A DNA stretch of 64,000 nucleotides, taken from NCBI RefSeq assembly GCF_000023905.1, contig NC_013192.1, forward strand, positions 1,240,001 to 1,304,000, in the 5' to 3' direction. The translations under genes were made by a program, and so were the position numbers. The notes beneath the pieces are model-generated. The model did not search any database, was not told where the DNA came from, and was given only the letters and a program-made list of their open reading frames with translations. Shown one piece after another: positions 34,262 to 42,726 of the stretch (within the stretch, counting starts at the first letter, position 1; every line of letters starts with the position of its first letter). Origin of the DNA: Leptotrichia buccalis C-1013-b (lineage in GTDB: Bacteria; Fusobacteriota; Fusobacteriia; Fusobacteriales; Leptotrichiaceae).

Positions 34262-35560
34262 ATGGATGTTACAGAATTTAAAAAATTAATTGAAAAAGAA
34301 AAAAATATAAATGTGGAGGAAAATAAAATGAATAATCAAGATAATCAAAAAGTTGGAATGAAAAATCAAATTTTAGAAAGTCTTAATGGATTGACAGTTA
34401 GTGAGAGAACAGTTAGTTTTGATGAAAAGACAAATAAAAAAATGTGGAATAGTTATAGTAATAGAGAAACAGTTAATATTATCGTTGCAGGGAAAACTGG
34501 TGTTGGAAAAAGTTCACTAATTAATTATATTTTTGGAGAAAAAGTAGCGGAAGTTGGTGCAGGGGCTCCTGTAACTCAAGAAATTGGAGCTTATCATTTG
34601 AAAGAAGATAATATAAATTTATACGATACAAAAGGAATTGAAGCTGAAAATTATGAAGAAACATTATCAAATATTCAAAATTTTTTAGCAGAAAGACAAA
34701 AGTCTAAAGATGAAAATGAGCATATTCATATTGCTTGGCTTTGCATTAGTGAAAGAAGTGATAGAATTGAAGCGGCTGACATAAAATTGCTTGAGATTTT
34801 GAAATCATCTGGAATTCCTACAATTGCAGTGTTTACAAAAAGAGACACAGTAAAGGAATCTGAATTTGTTAAAAAAGTAAAAGAAGAAGGAACATTGGAA
34901 AAAGCAAGAGCTATTGTGAGAGTACGAAGTGTTGAAGAGTTAGTTGAAATTGATGAAGATGAAAGATTGGTTTTAAAGCCTAGAGGAGCAGAAGAATTAC
35001 TACGTGAAACATATAAATATGTATCTGAAGGTAAACAAAATGCTATTAAAAAGGCCCAAATTGTAATTTTAAAAGATCGGCTTGAAGCAATGGCAAAAGA
35101 AGCTAATGATGCCACAAATAAATATGCATTTCTAGCGGCAGGAATTGGAGCGACACCATTACCTTTTGCAGATTCAATAGCTCTGGCCGCATTACAGACA
35201 AAATTGATTATTGATATTAACACAATTTATCGTGTAAATTCAGGAACTCATACTTTTACAGATATTGCGGCAGCTTTAATATCAATTACAGGTGTAGCAC
35301 AAGTTGGGAAATTAGCTGCTAATTTGCTGAAAATAGTTCCTGGTATTGGATGGGCGGCAAATGGAACAGTTGCGGCAAGTATTACGAAAGGAATTGGACT
35401 TGGATATTCTGAATATTTAAAAAATAATGTTAATACAGAAACTGGTGAAATTAATCTTGATCTGGACGATTTAAAACAGAATTTTTTCAAATATTTTAAT
35501 CAATTTAAAAATGAAGTTGTGAATAATTATGAAAATTATAAAAATAAATTCGGAAAATAA
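34262..35560 (+). CDS. GTPase with C-terminal DUF697 membrane domain
   Basis: The 432-residue product has a Ras-like GTPase domain: P-loop GKTGVGKS at residues 77-84, a switch Thr around 105, DTKG at 122-125 (G3) and TKRD at 192-195 (G4, replacing NKxD). The C-terminal half (about 280-400) is a DUF697 region with hydrophobic helices (GATPLPFADSIALAALQTK, then LLKIVPGIGWAANGT). Similar GTPases associate with membranes. Possibly a stress or membrane-remodelling GTPase. Starts: ATG 34262 (AGAAGGAG) is used; ATG 34328 also has GGAGG. It opens the co-directional gene run that reaches 41.6 kb. Confidence 0.85.
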   Translation: MDVTEFKKLIEKEKNINVEENKMNNQDNQKVGMKNQILESLNGLTVSERTVSFDEKTNKKMWNSYSNRETVNIIVAGKTGVGKSSLINYIFGEKVAEVGAGAPVTQEIGAYHLKEDNINLYDTKGIEAENYEETLSNIQNFLAERQKSKDENEHIHIAWLCISERSDRIEAADIKLLEILKSSGIPTIAVFTKRDTVKESEFVKKVKEEGTLEKARAIVRVRSVEELVEIDEDERLVLKPRGAEELLRETYKYVSEGKQNAIKKAQIVILKDRLEAMAKEANDATNKYAFLAAGIGATPLPFADSIALAALQTKLIIDINTIYRVNSGTHTFTDIAAALISITGVAQVGKLAANLLKIVPGIGWAANGTVAASITKGIGLGYSEYLKNNVNTETGEINLDLDDLKQNFFKYFNQFKNEVVNNYENYKNKFGK

Positions 35561-35578: not shown

Positions 35579-36136
35579 ATGGAGCGAATATTTATTTCAT
35601 TTTGTCGTGGAAATGATAAAAATATTGTAGAAAAAATTATAAAGAATGTAACAAAATCAGACTTTGTCCATTGTGAATTAATCGTCGGGAACACTGTTTA
35701 TGATTATTCTGAAACTTTAAACAAAAGTGGTAAAATGAAATGGTATTTGCCTGACCGTCTGGAAACAAGAACTTATTCAGAAAATCGAGCAGAAATTTTT
35801 GAAATAAAATTTCCAAGTGGAGAATTTTACAAAATTCAAAATTACATAGAAAATTACTTTGAAAACAATAATTACGATAAAGATATGAAAGTTTTTACAA
35901 TAGGCGGATTAGGATTTGGAAATGAGAAATATGTAAAAGGGAGCTTTAATAAAAGTACAACAATTTGCTCCCATTTTTGCTTTGAAATATTAAAATACAT
36001 TATAAAAAATTATTATAAAGATAATCAAATTTTAAATAAAAAGATAGATAAAATTCAAAAAAAATATGATGAACAAAGAGAGTATGTTACGCCGGGGTGG
36101 CTGTTTGAATATGGGAAAGAGATTTGGGAATTATAG
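35579..36136 (+). CDS. Permuted papain-like (NlpC/P60-superfamily, YiiX-like) cysteine hydrolase
   Basis: The 185-residue product shows the permuted order: His31 in DFVHCELIVG, then Cys130 in TTICSHFCFEIL. This His-before-Cys order is typical of permuted NlpC/P60 enzymes (LRAT/YiiX-like), which act as amidases or acyltransferases on peptides or lipids. No signal peptide is present, so it appears cytoplasmic. It follows the GTPase after 18 bases with a GAGGTG site, implying one operon. The substrate is unknown, and the assignment rests on the motifs. Confidence 0.65.
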   Translation: MERIFISFCRGNDKNIVEKIIKNVTKSDFVHCELIVGNTVYDYSETLNKSGKMKWYLPDRLETRTYSENRAEIFEIKFPSGEFYKIQNYIENYFENNNYDKDMKVFTIGGLGFGNEKYVKGSFNKSTTICSHFCFEILKYIIKNYYKDNQILNKKIDKIQKKYDEQREYVTPGWLFEYGKEIWEL

Positions 36137-36276
36137 TCATTAATCCTAATGTTTATATATTCTCTGTCTTGAAATAATTAAGTTATACTTTATGCCTTTT
36201 CTTCCATTTGTGCTTCTTAAATGATTTTTTAGTAGTTATTAAGAAGATGGAGAATTTAGAAAAAAGGATATAGTTT

Positions 36277-36489
36277 ATGTATTCGGGAAAATTGCATAAG
36301 GTGAAGTTTGAATACACGGGGCTGAAAGAAGTGTTTCTGGATAGATTGCCAACTGCGAAAATAAAGAAAGAAGAAAATTTGGAAAATAATGTGAAAAAAT
36401 ATACGATTTCGGCTGAAATTTATTGAGAAGAAGGAATTAAAATGTGGCTTAGAAGTCAAGGAAAAAAAATAAAAATATTGGAGGATTAG
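36277..36489 (+). pseudogene. C-terminal remnant of a WYL-domain regulator
   Basis: The frame from ATG 36277 reads YSGKLHKVKFEYTGLKEVFL, then LDRLPTAKI, ends AEIY at an in-frame TGA (36424-36426), and continues EEGIKMWLRSQGKKIKILED to TAG at 36487. This is the end of a WYL domain (pattern FEYTG, DRxPTAK, WLRSQG). The stop replaces the Gly usual after AEIY. No HTH part remains. The rest of 36137-36711 holds only short frames, including a 25-codon one from GTG 36601 that has no recognised match. Confidence 0.6.
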
Positions 36490-36711
36490 AGACAGTATAA
36501 TTGATCAGAATCAGTTAATATTGATAAAAAGCAACTGAGAAATAATTATAAAAGAATGGGAAATCATATGAAAAATTACTCTTAAAAAGGGAAGGATTTG
36601 TGAATAAAATTGAGATTGAGGAGATGTTTAGGGATAGAAAGAAAAAGGATTTGAAGAGGATGAATAGAAAAATATAAATTTTTTGAATAGGAAAGAAAAG
36701 GAGATGGAAAA

Positions 36712-37614
36712 ATGGTTAGTAAAACAATAATTTTTAATTACCGCTACGGAATAGACATATATTTTGCTACAGAGGTTATGCGAAAAGCACGAGAATTTGA
36801 AAGTAAAATTGAAATTGAGTATGATGGAAAAAAAATAAAAAACAAATCGCCATTGATGTTAAGCGGTTTTGGAATTAAAATGGGTTCAGAAATTACTATT
36901 TATGCAGATGGATCTGACGAGGAAGAAGCATTGGAAACAGTATCAAATCTTTTGGGTGTTGAAGAAGAAGTCTACAAGCAGGAAATTATAAATAGGAAAA
37001 ACTGGGAGAAAAACTGGAAAAGAATAGAACAGGAAGAAATGGAAAAGGATAGAAACAAAAGTCCAGAGGAAATAGAGAGGGAATTAAAAGAAATTGTTGA
37101 AGAAGCCGCATCTAACAAAGATAATCTTACAATTGGAAAAAGAATAATGTGTAGCCGTAGAAATACTCAACCAGGTATTGGGATAAATATTGGAGGATAT
37201 ATTATTCATCCATTTGATTTGATGGCAGGACCTGACTTTGATATTAAAACTTCAATTGAAAGAATTTGGGATGTTATGGTTTATCGAATTGACAAGAAAT
37301 TTAGAATTAATAATTCGATGTGGACAATAGTTCCTGCTATAAAAAAGAGAATTAAAGATATTATAGAAGAAGATGTGAAAAAAAATAATTTGGAAGAAAA
37401 ATTAGCAGAATCAATGATTCCTTATGTGTATTTTAATGTTCCAGGTTCAATAATGTCTCAAGTAACAAGAAAACTTGGAAATGCATATATAGTTTCATTA
37501 AAGAATACACTTAAATATGAGGATTCAGGGAAAATAATTGTGCCTACATATAAAGAGTTTTTGACGGAATTTGATAAAAATTTTGAGATGCCGAGGATAG
37601 AGTGGTGGTGGTAA
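36712..37614 (+). CDS. HPr-like domain with Asp15 and Ser46 fused to an unknown domain
   Basis: Residues 1-85 have the HPr pattern with exact spacing: the GLHARPA motif of HPr reads GIDIYFA here (residues 13-19), so His15, the phosphocarrier residue, is Asp15, while Ser46 in KNKSPLML (residues 43-50), the HPr-kinase site, is kept, followed by FGIKMGSEITIYADGSDEEE. This resembles Crh (Gln15, Ser46) in Bacillus, which cannot carry phosphate to sugars but acts in regulation. Residues 120-300 are an unrecognised domain ending in a Trp-rich tail (RIEWWW). A GGAGAT site precedes the ATG. Probably regulatory rather than a sugar-transport component. Confidence 0.7.
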   Translation: MVSKTIIFNYRYGIDIYFATEVMRKAREFESKIEIEYDGKKIKNKSPLMLSGFGIKMGSEITIYADGSDEEEALETVSNLLGVEEEVYKQEIINRKNWEKNWKRIEQEEMEKDRNKSPEEIERELKEIVEEAASNKDNLTIGKRIMCSRRNTQPGIGINIGGYIIHPFDLMAGPDFDIKTSIERIWDVMVYRIDKKFRINNSMWTIVPAIKKRIKDIIEEDVKKNNLEEKLAESMIPYVYFNVPGSIMSQVTRKLGNAYIVSLKNTLKYEDSGKIIVPTYKEFLTEFDKNFEMPRIEWWW

Positions 37615-37851: not shown

Positions 37852-39414
37852 ATGGAAAATTCGTATGTATTTAATACAGGAAAAGATTTTTTTCCAGATA
37901 AGCAAGAAAATGTAATGGATAGTATTTTTAAACAATACGAAAGAGTTATTGTTGAAAGTTTAATAACTTCATTTGGATTAGATTTTTTAATAAATGATCG
38001 TTATGGTGGTGATGTTGATACTGTTTTAAATGTTCGTAAAATTGGAAAAGACGAGCAAATGATGTATAAAAATAGTAAAAACGAAGAAATATATAACAAT
38101 CAAAGTAATTATGATTCACATAAGTATCATAATCATGAAAATTATAAAAATAAAAACAAAGAAATTAAGAAATTGAAGGAACAAGGATTACTATATGACT
38201 CATATACAGGAAAAAATATCGGATATAATGGAAAAAGTGATTTAGATCATATTATTTCGGCGAAAGAGATTCATCAAGATCGTGGACGTGTTTTATCGGG
38301 ACTTAAAGGAACAGATCTTGCAAATTCAGATGAAAATTTAAATGCTACTAATCCTAGAACTAACCGTACCAAAAAAGCGCATTCAATGGATAAGTTTTTA
38401 GAAAAATATGGTAATGAATATACTGATTCTCAAAAAGAAAATATGAAAAATATAGATAAAAATAGTCGAAAAATTTACGATGATAAAATAAAAAGAGAAT
38501 ATTACACAAGTAGCAGTTTTTCAAAAGATTTAACTTCAGCAGCGGCAACTGTGGGTGTTCAAATGGGATTTAGACAGGCTTTAGGCTTTGTATTTGCAGA
38601 AATATGGTTTTCAGTTAAAGAAGAATTTAAAAATTTTGATAATCATTTTGATTTAAAGGAAGTTTTAGATAAGATTGGAAATTCTATAAAGCGTGCATTT
38701 GAAAATGCTAAAACAAAATATAAAGAAATTTTTTCTAAATTTTTGGAAGGTAGCATTGCTGGAGCAATTTCAAGTATTACTACTACATTATGTAATATAT
38801 TTTTTACTACAGCCAAAAATATAGTTAAAATTATTAGACAAACTTGGGTATCTGTTGTGCAGGCAGCAAAAATACTGTTTATTAATCCTGATAATTTGCC
38901 TTTTGGAGAAAGAATGAGGGCAGTTGTAAAAATTCTTTCAATAGGTGCAAGTGTTGTTGTTGGTGTATTAGTAAATGAAGCAGTTGCTAAAATTCCGATT
39001 GGATTAATACCAGTTGCAGGCGATATTATTCAAACATTTTGTGGTACACTTGTTACAGGTATTATGAGTTGTACTCTTTTATATTTTCTTGATAGAAATG
39101 AGAAAATTAATAAAATATTTAATTTTTTAAATAAACTTCCAACTTTTGAAAATAATGTCAATTATTTTTATCAGCAAGCAGAATATTTTGAAGCATATGC
39201 TGCAGAACTTATGAATATTGGTATAGAAGAATTTAAAAGAGAAGTTAAAAAATATGATGAATTTGCAGTAAAAATAGAAAATGTACAAAATGATCCGGCC
39301 AGATTAAATAATTTATTAAAAAACATGCTTGATACCATGGGAGTAAAACTTTCTTGGAATGGAGATTTCGATACTTTTATGCAAGATAAAAATTCTAGAC
39401 TGGTGTTTAGATAA
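37852..39414 (+). CDS. HNH-motif protein with C-terminal membrane segments
   Basis: The 520-residue product has an HNH-like nuclease motif: DLDHII at residues 130-135 (Asp132-His133), then ENLNATNPRTNRTK at 161-174 with candidate Asn ligands. The second half has hydrophobic segments (around 225-245, 300-325 and 360-410: SIGASVVVGVLVNEAVAK, IPVAGDIIQTFCG). A nuclease joined to a membrane domain is uncommon. An AAGGAGAAAT site precedes the ATG. It overlaps the next start (TAATG). I do not recognise the exact family; the nuclease call rests on the motif. Confidence 0.55.
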   Translation: MENSYVFNTGKDFFPDKQENVMDSIFKQYERVIVESLITSFGLDFLINDRYGGDVDTVLNVRKIGKDEQMMYKNSKNEEIYNNQSNYDSHKYHNHENYKNKNKEIKKLKEQGLLYDSYTGKNIGYNGKSDLDHIISAKEIHQDRGRVLSGLKGTDLANSDENLNATNPRTNRTKKAHSMDKFLEKYGNEYTDSQKENMKNIDKNSRKIYDDKIKREYYTSSSFSKDLTSAAATVGVQMGFRQALGFVFAEIWFSVKEEFKNFDNHFDLKEVLDKIGNSIKRAFENAKTKYKEIFSKFLEGSIAGAISSITTTLCNIFFTTAKNIVKIIRQTWVSVVQAAKILFINPDNLPFGERMRAVVKILSIGASVVVGVLVNEAVAKIPIGLIPVAGDIIQTFCGTLVTGIMSCTLLYFLDRNEKINKIFNFLNKLPTFENNVNYFYQQAEYFEAYAAELMNIGIEEFKREVKKYDEFAVKIENVQNDPARLNNLLKNMLDTMGVKLSWNGDFDTFMQDKNSRLVFR

Positions 39415-39695: not shown

Positions 39696-40731
39696 ATGCC
39701 ATTACCAATTATTATAGGAGTAGCTGCAGCATTAGCTGGAGCAGCAGGTGTAGGAGCAGGAGTTCATGGAGCTGTTAAAATGAAAGAAGCAAACGATACT
39801 ATGGATTTAGCTAATAAAAGACATAAAAGAAATATGGAAAAATTAGAAGGAAAAAATAAATTTGCACTTGAACAAATGGATAAATTAGGTAGGTAAAAAA
39901 GAGTTAGAAATTATAAAATCTTTTGATGAATTTAGTAATGTTTTTGAGAAGATACAAAATAAACCAGAATTTGCTTCTTATAACAAAGAAGGAGTTAGTA
40001 TTCCAAAATATAACCCTCAAGAATTAAAACAAGCCTCAATAGGAGCAGGAATACTACTTGGTGGACTTGGTGGCGCAGCGTTAGGAACAGCGGGAGGATT
40101 TGCAGCTGCAGGAGCAACGACTGCTGCAGTTATGGCGTTAGGAACAGCTTCAACAGGAACTGCAATTGCTACTTTAAGTGGAGCAGCAGCAACTAATGCA
40201 ACTTTGGCGGCATTAGGAGGAGGTGCACTTGCTGCAGGTGGAGGTGGTATGGCATTAGGAGCTGCTATTTTAGGTGGAGCCACTTTAGGAGTTGGATTAT
40301 TAGTTGGTGGGGTTATTTTTTCTATTACGGGAAATAGTCTTTCAGAAAAAGCAGATGAAGCATGGGCTAAGATGAGAGAAGCAGAAAAAGAAATTGAAAA
40401 AATAAGCCTTTATTTAGATGATTTAAGTAATACTGCAGATAAATTTTATAATGCTCTCTATAAAATAGAGACAGTCTACAAGTATCATTTAAACTATTTA
40501 AAACATATAGTATATGATTTAAAGAAGACAAATTGGATTGATTTTACAATAGAAGAAAAAATTTGGACTGAAAATATAGTTTTACTTGTAAGTATTTTAT
40601 ATAATATGGTAAAAACTAAATTAGTCTTAAAGAGCAATAATGAAAAAGAATTAAATAAAATTAACAAAGAAGAAACTGAGAGATTAATTTCTGATTCAAA
40701 TAGAGCTCTTATTGAAAAAGGACTAATGTAA
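39696..40731 (+). pseudogene. Glycine-zipper membrane protein split by a 4-bp duplication
   Basis: An AGGAGG site precedes ATG 39696. The first frame runs MPLPIIIGVAAALAGAAGVG ... EQMDKLGR and stops at 39896. The sequence there has AGGTAGGT; removing one AGGT joins it to the next frame, which reads GKKELEIIKSFDEFSNVF, then long Gly/Ala-rich membrane segments (around 40030-40330), and ends at 40731. Restored length is about 343 residues. Glycine-zipper segments often pack within membranes or form pores. It could be an assembly error or a genuine inactivation, and the downstream part has an internal ATG at 40132. Confidence 0.65.
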
Positions 40732-41781: not shown

Positions 41782-42726
41782 TTGTATTTGCAAGAGTGGG
41801 ATTTTGGTATGGAAGATAAAATGAATATGAAAGTTATTGGAATTGGCGGGATGGGGATAAATTTTGTTAATTTTATGATAACTTCAAAAGTAAAAAATGT
41901 AGAGTATATAACAATTGACACAGATAGTGAAAATTCTAATGCAAGTCGGGCTCAAAAGAAGATATTCTTAGATACTGGAGTCCCCAAATGTCAAAGGGAA
42001 TTGGCTGAGAGAGTAGCATTTCAATGTGAAAGACAGTTTTATGATTTGTTAAAGGGAACAGATATTCTATTTTTAATTTCTGGAATTGGTGGAGCTGCAG
42101 GAAGTGGAATAACGCCAGTTATTCTTGAAATCGCAAAAAAGTTAAGAATTTTTACAATAAGTATTATTGCACGTCCATTTTATTTGGAAGGATTTGAAAC
42201 TTTGAAAATTGCAAATATTGGAATAAAAAAAATTGAAAAGAATACAAATAGCCTTATAATAATTCCAAACGAAAAATTATATAATCATATAGACAGGAAA
42301 GAACCACTTGAAGTAGCTTATGCTAAAGTTAACGAGATTATAAAGGAAGGTATTGAAAGTATTGTAAATATTCTTACGGAAGTTGGGTTTATGAATATTG
42401 ATTTTCTGGATGTGAAGTCAGTACTGAATAATTCCAAAGATACAATTATTCGTGTAGGGAAAGGTAAGGGAGATAGGGCGGTAGATAATATAATTGAACA
42501 GTTAATGAAAAATAATTTGTTTGAAGGAAAGCTAGAAAATGCTAAAAAGGTTTTAATAAGTTTTACTGCTGGACACAGTGTTTCATTATCAGATATAGGA
42601 ATAATAACAGAAAAAATTTCAAATATTGTAAAAGATAAAAATGTCAATCTAGTGTGGGGTGTCATATTTAATCAAACTTATGATGAAACAGGAGAAATAA
42701 AGACAGTTGTAATTTCAAGTGTTTAG
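41782..42726 (+). CDS. Divergent FtsZ-like GTPase
   Basis: The 314-residue product aligns with FtsZ from end to end: MKVIGIGGMGINFVNFMI at about 16-33, DTDSEN, the GTP-loop GGAAGSG at 103-109 (usually GGGTGTG), RPFYLEGF, IIPNEKLY, the catalytic T7 loop NIDFLD (residues 205-210, pattern N-x-D-F-x-D) and the C-terminal domain with WGVIFNQTYDETGEIKTVVI. It lacks the LTRGLGAGANPE stretch (FLDTGVPKC instead) and the C-terminal linker and tail that recruit FtsA. Probably a second FtsZ-like protein, not the division ring. TTG 41782 (AGGGAG site) is used; ATG 41809 lacks a site. Confidence 0.75.
   Translation: MYLQEWDFGMEDKMNMKVIGIGGMGINFVNFMITSKVKNVEYITIDTDSENSNASRAQKKIFLDTGVPKCQRELAERVAFQCERQFYDLLKGTDILFLISGIGGAAGSGITPVILEIAKKLRIFTISIIARPFYLEGFETLKIANIGIKKIEKNTNSLIIIPNEKLYNHIDRKEPLEVAYAKVNEIIKEGIESIVNILTEVGFMNIDFLDVKSVLNNSKDTIIRVGKGKGDRAVDNIIEQLMKNNLFEGKLENAKKVLISFTAGHSVSLSDIGIITEKISNIVKDKNVNLVWGVIFNQTYDETGEIKTVVISSV

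What the first reader, a model, noticed from the sequence alone, without database searches (positions are those of the whole stretch)
36712..37614. HPr-fold domain with Asp in place of His15, Ser46 kept, fused to an unknown 200-residue domain
Seen: residues line up with HPr without gaps to position 46; GIDIYFA replaces GLHARPA, Ser46 remains. Known: Crh in Bacillus lacks His15 (Gln) but is phosphorylated on Ser46 by HPr kinase and regulates CcpA. Inference: this is a signalling, not carrier, domain, and its fused C-terminal half may be the output. An HPr-like domain joined to such a half is new to me.
Basis: partly seen in the sequence, partly recalled or inferred. Interest (0 to 1): 0.7.

Follow-up and report, generated by a model that had tools for sequence, protein, structure and literature searches.

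The report
HPr-like domain fused to DUF697 domain
In three Leptotrichia species a copy of the sugar-transport protein HPr has lost its phosphate-carrying site and been joined to a helical domain otherwise found on or beside GTPases in defence-type gene clusters, so it probably works as a binding module rather than in sugar transport.

Summary
ORF 36712-37614 is intact (300 aa). Residues 1-82 are a real HPr domain: Pfam E 2.5e-15, AlphaFold model, HPr structures at TM mostly 0.8-0.9. Asp15 replaces His15, Tyr17 replaces Arg17, and Ser46 is kept. It derives from the family's own HPr. The Crh/HPr-kinase reading fails: no HPr kinase was found in any of 13 Leptotrichia genomes, although 69 of 98 genomes of the class have it, and ordinary Leptotrichia HPr keeps Ser46 anyway. 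The 'unknown' half has relatives: residues ~187-293 are a strongly diverged DUF697 domain, closest to a small DUF697 protein encoded next to BnzB (Bunzi defence protein) in three other Leptotrichia. The fusion was found in only three Leptotrichia genomes. A WYL-type regulator lies immediately upstream in two of them and as a pseudogene remnant in the window. The neighbourhood holds GTPase/dynamin and candidate-defence genes. Changes concentrate on the face that HPr uses to bind partners, while the scaffold is conserved. Best reading: a pseudo-HPr docking module re-aimed at a new partner and attached to a DUF697 arm of a GTPase/defence-type cassette. Architecture and lost site are shown; the role is inferred. 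Not found described before; narrow distribution.

The parts
36712..37614 (+). HPr-DUF697 fusion gene (300 aa)
   Evidence: ORF; orthologs with the same architecture in two other Leptotrichia genomes
36712..36957 (+). HPr-like domain, residues 1-82 (D15, Y17, S46)
   Evidence: Pfam PF00381 E 2.5e-15; AlphaFold and Foldseek
36958..37269 (+). Linker, residues 83-186: helical, charged, variable in length between species, followed by a low-confidence stretch
   Evidence: AlphaFold helices 85-113 and 118-134, pLDDT <50 from 124 on; indels and dN/dS ~0.63-1.1 for residues 83-150
37270..37590 (+). Diverged DUF697-like region, residues ~187-293
   Evidence: Leptotrichiaceae DUF697 profile E ~1e-7 against 5000 shuffles (best shuffle 0.4), alignment spans residues 187-293; reverse hit from the L036 DUF697 protein at E 0.0055 (window) and 0.0013 (G007)
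36205..36490 (+). Pseudogene remnant of the WYL-domain regulator that is intact upstream of the orthologs
   Evidence: 86-90% DNA identity to the 3' end of the intact WYL genes in L034 and L035 over 36243-36490; two in-frame stops
36490..36700 (+). Remnant of the 240-aa gene (helical, coiled-coil-like by eye) that lies between WYL and HPr-DUF697 in L035
   Evidence: Two matching pieces, L035 10294-10218 and from 9751 on, ~91% identity, middle missing
34262..35560 (+). GTPase with C-terminal DUF697 (432 aa), candidate partner; weak LeoA/LeoBC profile hits
   Evidence: Pfam MMR_HSR1 2e-14 and DUF697 1.5e-11; PADLOC LeoA 1e-10
35579..36136 (+). 185-aa protein downstream of the GTPase; same gene pair in G004 and G006
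   Evidence: Gene pair conserved; no family match. A permuted NlpC/P60-like peptidase is only a guess from its H and C motifs
37852..39414 (+). 520-aa protein; PADLOC phage-defence candidate PDC-M40B; HNH-like motif by eye
   Evidence: PDLC04630 E 1.6e-46; HNH-like motif is my reading of the sequence

Best explanation
The gene arose when a copy of the Leptotrichiaceae ptsH (HPr) gene was joined to a small DUF697-type protein gene. The HPr part should no longer take phosphate from Enzyme I (His15 and Arg17 lost) and no Ser46 kinase was found. It has been re-used as a phosphate-independent docking module whose classical partner-binding face was rebuilt (conserved motif FNYRYGIDIYF) while the scaffold stayed. 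The DUF697 part probably links the protein to the GTPase side of a defence- or stress-type gene cassette that a WYL regulator originally controlled. Shown: architecture, lost phosphorylation site, missing kinase, DUF697 kinship (likely, about 0.85), WYL and GTPase neighbourhood. Inferred: that the HPr face binds a new protein, that the DUF697 part pairs with a GTPase or another DUF697 protein, that WYL controls the gene, and that the cassette is defensive.
For: HPr fold. The tree places it inside the Leptotrichiaceae HPr clade (92/98) on a long branch. H15 and R17 lost in all three orthologs. HPr kinase not found in 13/13 Leptotrichia; Enzyme I and ordinary HPr present. Non-conservative change from the genome's own HPr in 20 of 28 face residues (9-24, 46-57) against 12 of 54 elsewhere, p 3e-5, while face residues are as conserved as the rest among the orthologs (24/28 invariant). 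The face is the one HPr uses for Enzyme I, Rsd, LsrK and MtlR (PMC6763467). DUF697 kinship; block pLDDT for residues ~178-300 rises from ~27-58 to ~48-70 when DUF697 rows join the alignment. DUF697-only relatives lie next to BnzB in 3/3 genomes. WYL gene or its remnant upstream in all three loci; WYL regulators often sit with phage defence systems (PMC9122601). Dynamin-like and GTPase genes around. dN/dS 0.38-0.55, no stops in three species.
Against: No interaction or phenotype data. The DUF697 part has lost the Gly/Ala-rich hydrophobic helices of its relatives (G+A 0.06-0.08 against mostly 0.14-0.23), and the Pfam DUF697 model, a broad DUF697 profile and a GTPase-DUF697-only profile do not detect it. 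Gene neighbours differ between the three loci (dynamins in two, GTPase-DUF697 in the window), so no fixed partner is proven. In the window the WYL gene is dead. Purifying selection is only moderate, one of three pairwise tests is not significant (p 0.06), and the linker is near neutral. The choice of face residues (9-24, 46-57) was mine, made after seeing the alignment, so its p value is optimistic.
Confidence: 0.5

Rival explanations
1. Crh-like regulator: phosphorylated at Ser46 by HPr kinase and acting on a CcpA-type transcription factor, with the C-terminal half as output.
For: Ser46 conserved in the three orthologs, His15 lost as in Crh; Foldseek also hits Crh (1zvv_J, TM by target 0.91).
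Against: No HPr kinase found in any of 13 Leptotrichia genomes. Ordinary HPr keeps Ser46 in the same kinase-less genomes. Pro or Ser at 47 and a changed helix 2.
Confidence: 0.05
2. PTS-linked sensor or decoy: the unphosphorylatable HPr still docks on Enzyme I or an EIIA and reports or dampens PTS state to the DUF697/GTPase side.
For: HPr fold, Ser46 and a basic residue at 27 kept; Enzyme I and canonical HPr are present in the genome; descent from the family's own HPr.
Against: The face that contacts Enzyme I is the most changed part. Arg17 is lost and Asp15 adds negative charge, whereas Enzyme I, Rsd, LsrK and MtlR bind the basic surface of HPr with acidic residues, some close to His15 (PMC6763467).
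Confidence: 0.22
3. Decaying or neutral fusion: a chance recombinant gene on its way out in a variable island.
For: Present in 3 of 13 Leptotrichia genomes, only a 67-bp remnant in G002; neighbouring WYL, 240-aa and dynamin genes are broken in one or another locus; modest purifying selection.
Against: Open in three species at dS ~0.11-0.13, with fewer nonsynonymous changes than neutral (p 0.004, 0.06, 0.002); the new face motif is invariant and the start is preceded by a good ribosome-binding site.
Confidence: 0.2

Closest known systems
HPr / PTS-HPr (PF00381), e.g. ptsH of Leptotrichia
   Same: Fold, ungapped alignment over 82 residues, 43% identity, Ser46, common ancestry
   Different: No His15/Arg17/Pro18; rebuilt partner face; fused to a helical C-terminal half; not beside the genome's Enzyme I or canonical HPr
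Crh of Bacillus
   Same: HPr paralog without His15 and with Ser46
   Different: Crh is a stand-alone protein that works through HPr kinase and CcpA (from general knowledge); no HPr kinase was found in Leptotrichia; Asp, not Gln, at 15 and a fused domain
DUF697 (PF05128) proteins: GTPase-DUF697 (window 34262-35560) and the small DUF697 protein beside BnzB in Leptotrichia
   Same: Order of motifs: M(V/I)xxI(D/N)xx(F/Y)R(I/V), then (I/M)P, then T(R/K)xxGxAYIxxLKN, then an acidic/aromatic tail
   Different: About 12-23% identity over the C-terminal region; Gly/Ala-rich hydrophobic segments replaced by more polar residues; below Pfam's detection; carries an HPr domain instead of a GTPase or a plain coil
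Known HPr fusions (IIA-HPr/FPr, DhaM, PtsP-type)
   Same: HPr domain in a multidomain protein
   Different: Those are PTS phosphotransfer proteins; here no phosphotransfer domain is attached and His15 is lost
Bunzi (BnzB) and LeoABC/dynamin-type cassettes
   Same: DUF697-type or dynamin-like partners in defence-island-like settings; WYL regulators nearby
   Different: No BnzB in this genome; neighbours only resemble PADLOC models (LeoA/LeoBC ~1e-10, PDC-M40B 1.6e-46)

Membership tests
HPr family (fold and ancestry) | HPr open-faced beta-sandwich and PF00381 match above cut-off | tested here: met
   56.7 bits against 23; AlphaFold and Foldseek
HPr phosphocarrier (function) | His15 with Arg17 active site | tested here: not met
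   D15 and Y17 in all three orthologs
Crh-type regulator | HPr kinase present to phosphorylate Ser46 | tested here: not met
   PF07475 and a protein query find none in 13 Leptotrichia genomes; the profile search finds 69/98 in the class
Crh-type regulator | Ser46 present | tested here: met
   S46 in all three, but also in the canonical Leptotrichia HPrs
Crh-type regulator | Binding to CcpA | not tested
   No CcpA search or binding assay made
DUF697 (PF05128) | Match to the curated Pfam model | tested here: not met
   No hit at E <= 1
DUF697-related (Leptotrichiaceae branch) | Profile similarity beyond chance | tested here: met
   E 8e-8 to 4e-6 against best shuffle 0.4 of 5000; ranks above unrelated ORFs; hhalign 90%. 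Depends on including the BnzB-side proteins: a GTPase-only profile gives E 0.1-0.8
DUF697-related (Leptotrichiaceae branch) | Same fold | tested here: inconclusive
   Helical model, pLDDT mostly 50-70
Bunzi defence system | BnzB encoded with it | tested here: not met
   BnzB not found in this genome or in the two others with the fusion; present beside the DUF697-only relatives

The most novel reading that the evidence does not exclude
A pseudo-HPr has been recruited as the sensing or docking arm of a GTPase/DUF697 immune-type cassette, so that the core of sugar-transport signalling, or a phage protein that targets it, is guarded by a defence system.
Probability: 0.08. Interest if true: 0.8.

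Novelty: new variant of a known kind. Interest (0 to 1): 0.45.

Why it matters
HPr is a textbook phosphocarrier with a well-mapped partner face. A natural HPr that has lost phosphotransfer, keeps its scaffold, has a rebuilt face and is fused to a GTPase-associated domain would show how a PTS protein can be turned into a plain docking module. It would also link the PTS family to DUF697/GTPase cassettes of unknown mechanism. The distribution is narrow (three Leptotrichia species), which limits its weight.

Tried and rejected
Crh/HPr-kinase model: rejected on the absent kinase. The built-in control of the PF07475 search did not ring in B. subtilis, so I repeated it with a Fusobacteriia HPr-kinase protein query. 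Known metabolic enzyme in the C-terminal half: no Pfam or NCBIfam match. Close relatives of the C-terminal half in 85k species genomes: only L. hongkongensis. Whole protein in plasmids and phages: only matches to its HPr part (one enterobacterial plasmid example is a DhaK/DhaL-linked HPr). Viral contigs: none. A broad DUF697 profile and a GTPase-DUF697-only profile fail; only profiles that include the Leptotrichia DUF697-only proteins detect it. The second structure model was judged too weak for a fold search. Literature searches found no HPr-DUF697 fusion and almost nothing on DUF697. Searches for HPr fusions outside Fusobacteriia genomes were not exhaustive.

Full report
What is there. The ORF at 36712-37614 is open and 300 aa long. 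The first 82 residues match PTS-HPr with E 2.5e-15 and align without a gap to the genome's own HPr. AlphaFold gives the HPr element order, and Foldseek returns HPr structures, including E. coli His15Asp mutants and the CcpA-Crh-DNA complex. His15 is Asp, Arg17 is Tyr, Pro18 is Phe, and Ser46 is kept.

Origin. The genome has three HPr domains: an 86-aa canonical HPr, a second HPr-like protein with GLHARP, and this one. Enzyme I is present. In a tree of 31 HPrs the fused domain falls inside the Leptotrichiaceae HPr clade (92/98) on a long branch, so it is most simply a fast-evolving copy of the family's own HPr. The tree program warned about long branches meeting, so the exact sister is not known.

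The Crh idea. HPr kinase (PF07475) was not found in this genome or in any of 13 Leptotrichia genomes, while 69 of 98 Fusobacteriia genomes have it. A protein query with a Fusobacteriia HPr kinase gave the same empty answer in the genus. Canonical Leptotrichia HPrs keep Ser46 without a kinase. Ser46 in the fusion is therefore inherited and gives no support to a Crh mechanism.

The C-terminal half. Pfam and NCBIfam give nothing for it. A related genome (G002) encodes a 195-aa protein with a weak DUF697 match (21 bits, below cut-off) and the same ending motif (GEAYIITLKN against GNAYIVSLKN). That protein, used as a query over 98 genomes, finds the fusion at E 0.0013 and 0.0055. A profile of Leptotrichiaceae DUF697 proteins, built without the fusions, scores their last 131 residues at E 8e-8 to 4e-6, against 0.4 for the best of 5000 shuffles. 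Profile-profile comparison gives 90% probability. The signal comes mostly from the DUF697-only proteins; GTPase-DUF697 sequences alone do not detect it, nor does a broad DUF697 profile. With DUF697 rows in the alignment the AlphaFold confidence of residues ~178-300 rises from block means of about 27-58 to about 48-70. I take the kinship as likely (about 0.85), not proven. Compared with relatives, the fusion has lost the Gly/Ala-rich hydrophobic helices, so it is less likely than they are to insert into membranes.

Distribution and selection. The full fusion occurs in this genome, in L. hongkongensis (G007) and in G010, and in no other genome among the 60 relatives searched. A 67-bp remnant of its 5' end lies in G002, in the same broad chromosomal neighbourhood as the window (the ATP-grasp/ABC-transporter/LepA region; the window side of ABC and LepA is judged from ORF sizes). 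No close relative of the C-terminal half was found in 85k species genomes except L. hongkongensis; no viral relative; plasmid and phage hits cover the HPr part only. dN/dS over the three pairs is 0.38-0.55, with fewer replacements than neutral (p 0.004, 0.06, 0.002).

Neighbourhood. In L. hongkongensis a WYL regulator ends about 50 bases upstream of the fusion. In G010 the WYL gene, a 240-aa gene and the fusion are tightly packed, followed by dynamin-like genes and a HerA-like ATPase. In the window the WYL gene is a 3' remnant with two stops and the 240-aa gene is reduced to pieces, while the fusion is intact. Beside it are a GTPase-DUF697 gene, a 185-aa protein, a PDC-M40B candidate defence protein and a PDC-M09A-like protein. 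The DUF697-only relatives sit next to BnzB in all three genomes that have them. WYL regulators are known to sit with phage defence systems (PMC9122601).

How it may work. HPr binds Enzyme I, Rsd, LsrK and MtlR through one face around His15, Arg17 and helix 2, using a basic surface and residues 47-48 (PMC6763467). In the fusion 20 of 28 residues of that face (9-24, 46-57; my choice of residues) are non-conservatively changed, against 12 of 54 elsewhere (p 3e-5), and the new face is as conserved among orthologs as the rest (24 of 28 invariant). That pattern fits a scaffold kept for its shape and a face re-aimed at a new partner better than decay. The attached DUF697 part suggests that the partner chain leads to a GTPase or another DUF697 protein. 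This last step, and any defence role, is inference from gene neighbourhood.

Verdict. Real, new as an architecture as far as searched, narrow in distribution, mechanism unproven. New variant of a known kind.

Noticed in passing
L080:1414-3375 (-) and most of 69 HPr-kinase-positive Fusobacteriia genomes: In most HPr-kinase-positive Fusobacteriia the kinase is one ~650-aa ORF with two HPr-kinase C domains. In the one copy I read (L080) the first domain lacks the Walker A motif (GEEAAKLGTT against GKSGIGKSE), so it looks like a tandem kinase with a pseudokinase half.
   Followed up: partly
window 41782-42726 (+): A second, divergent FtsZ-like gene (314 aa, 203 bits against the NCBIfam cut-off of 295). 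The genome has another, stronger tubulin/FtsZ match at C1:216300.
   Followed up: partly
window 37852-39414 and 40132-40731 (+): Proteins matching PADLOC phage-defence candidates PDC-M40B (1.6e-46) and PDC-M09A (8.7e-29), near the fusion gene.
   Followed up: no
L036:16675-18641 (-), also G001 and G004: BnzB-like gene (1.3e-136) directly followed by a DUF697-only gene in three Leptotrichia genomes, a possible variant of the Bunzi system.
   Followed up: partly
L034:9272-11449 (+): Two partial, stop-broken dynamin-like GTPase copies upstream of an intact 787-aa dynamin in L. hongkongensis, suggesting repeated duplication and decay.
   Followed up: no
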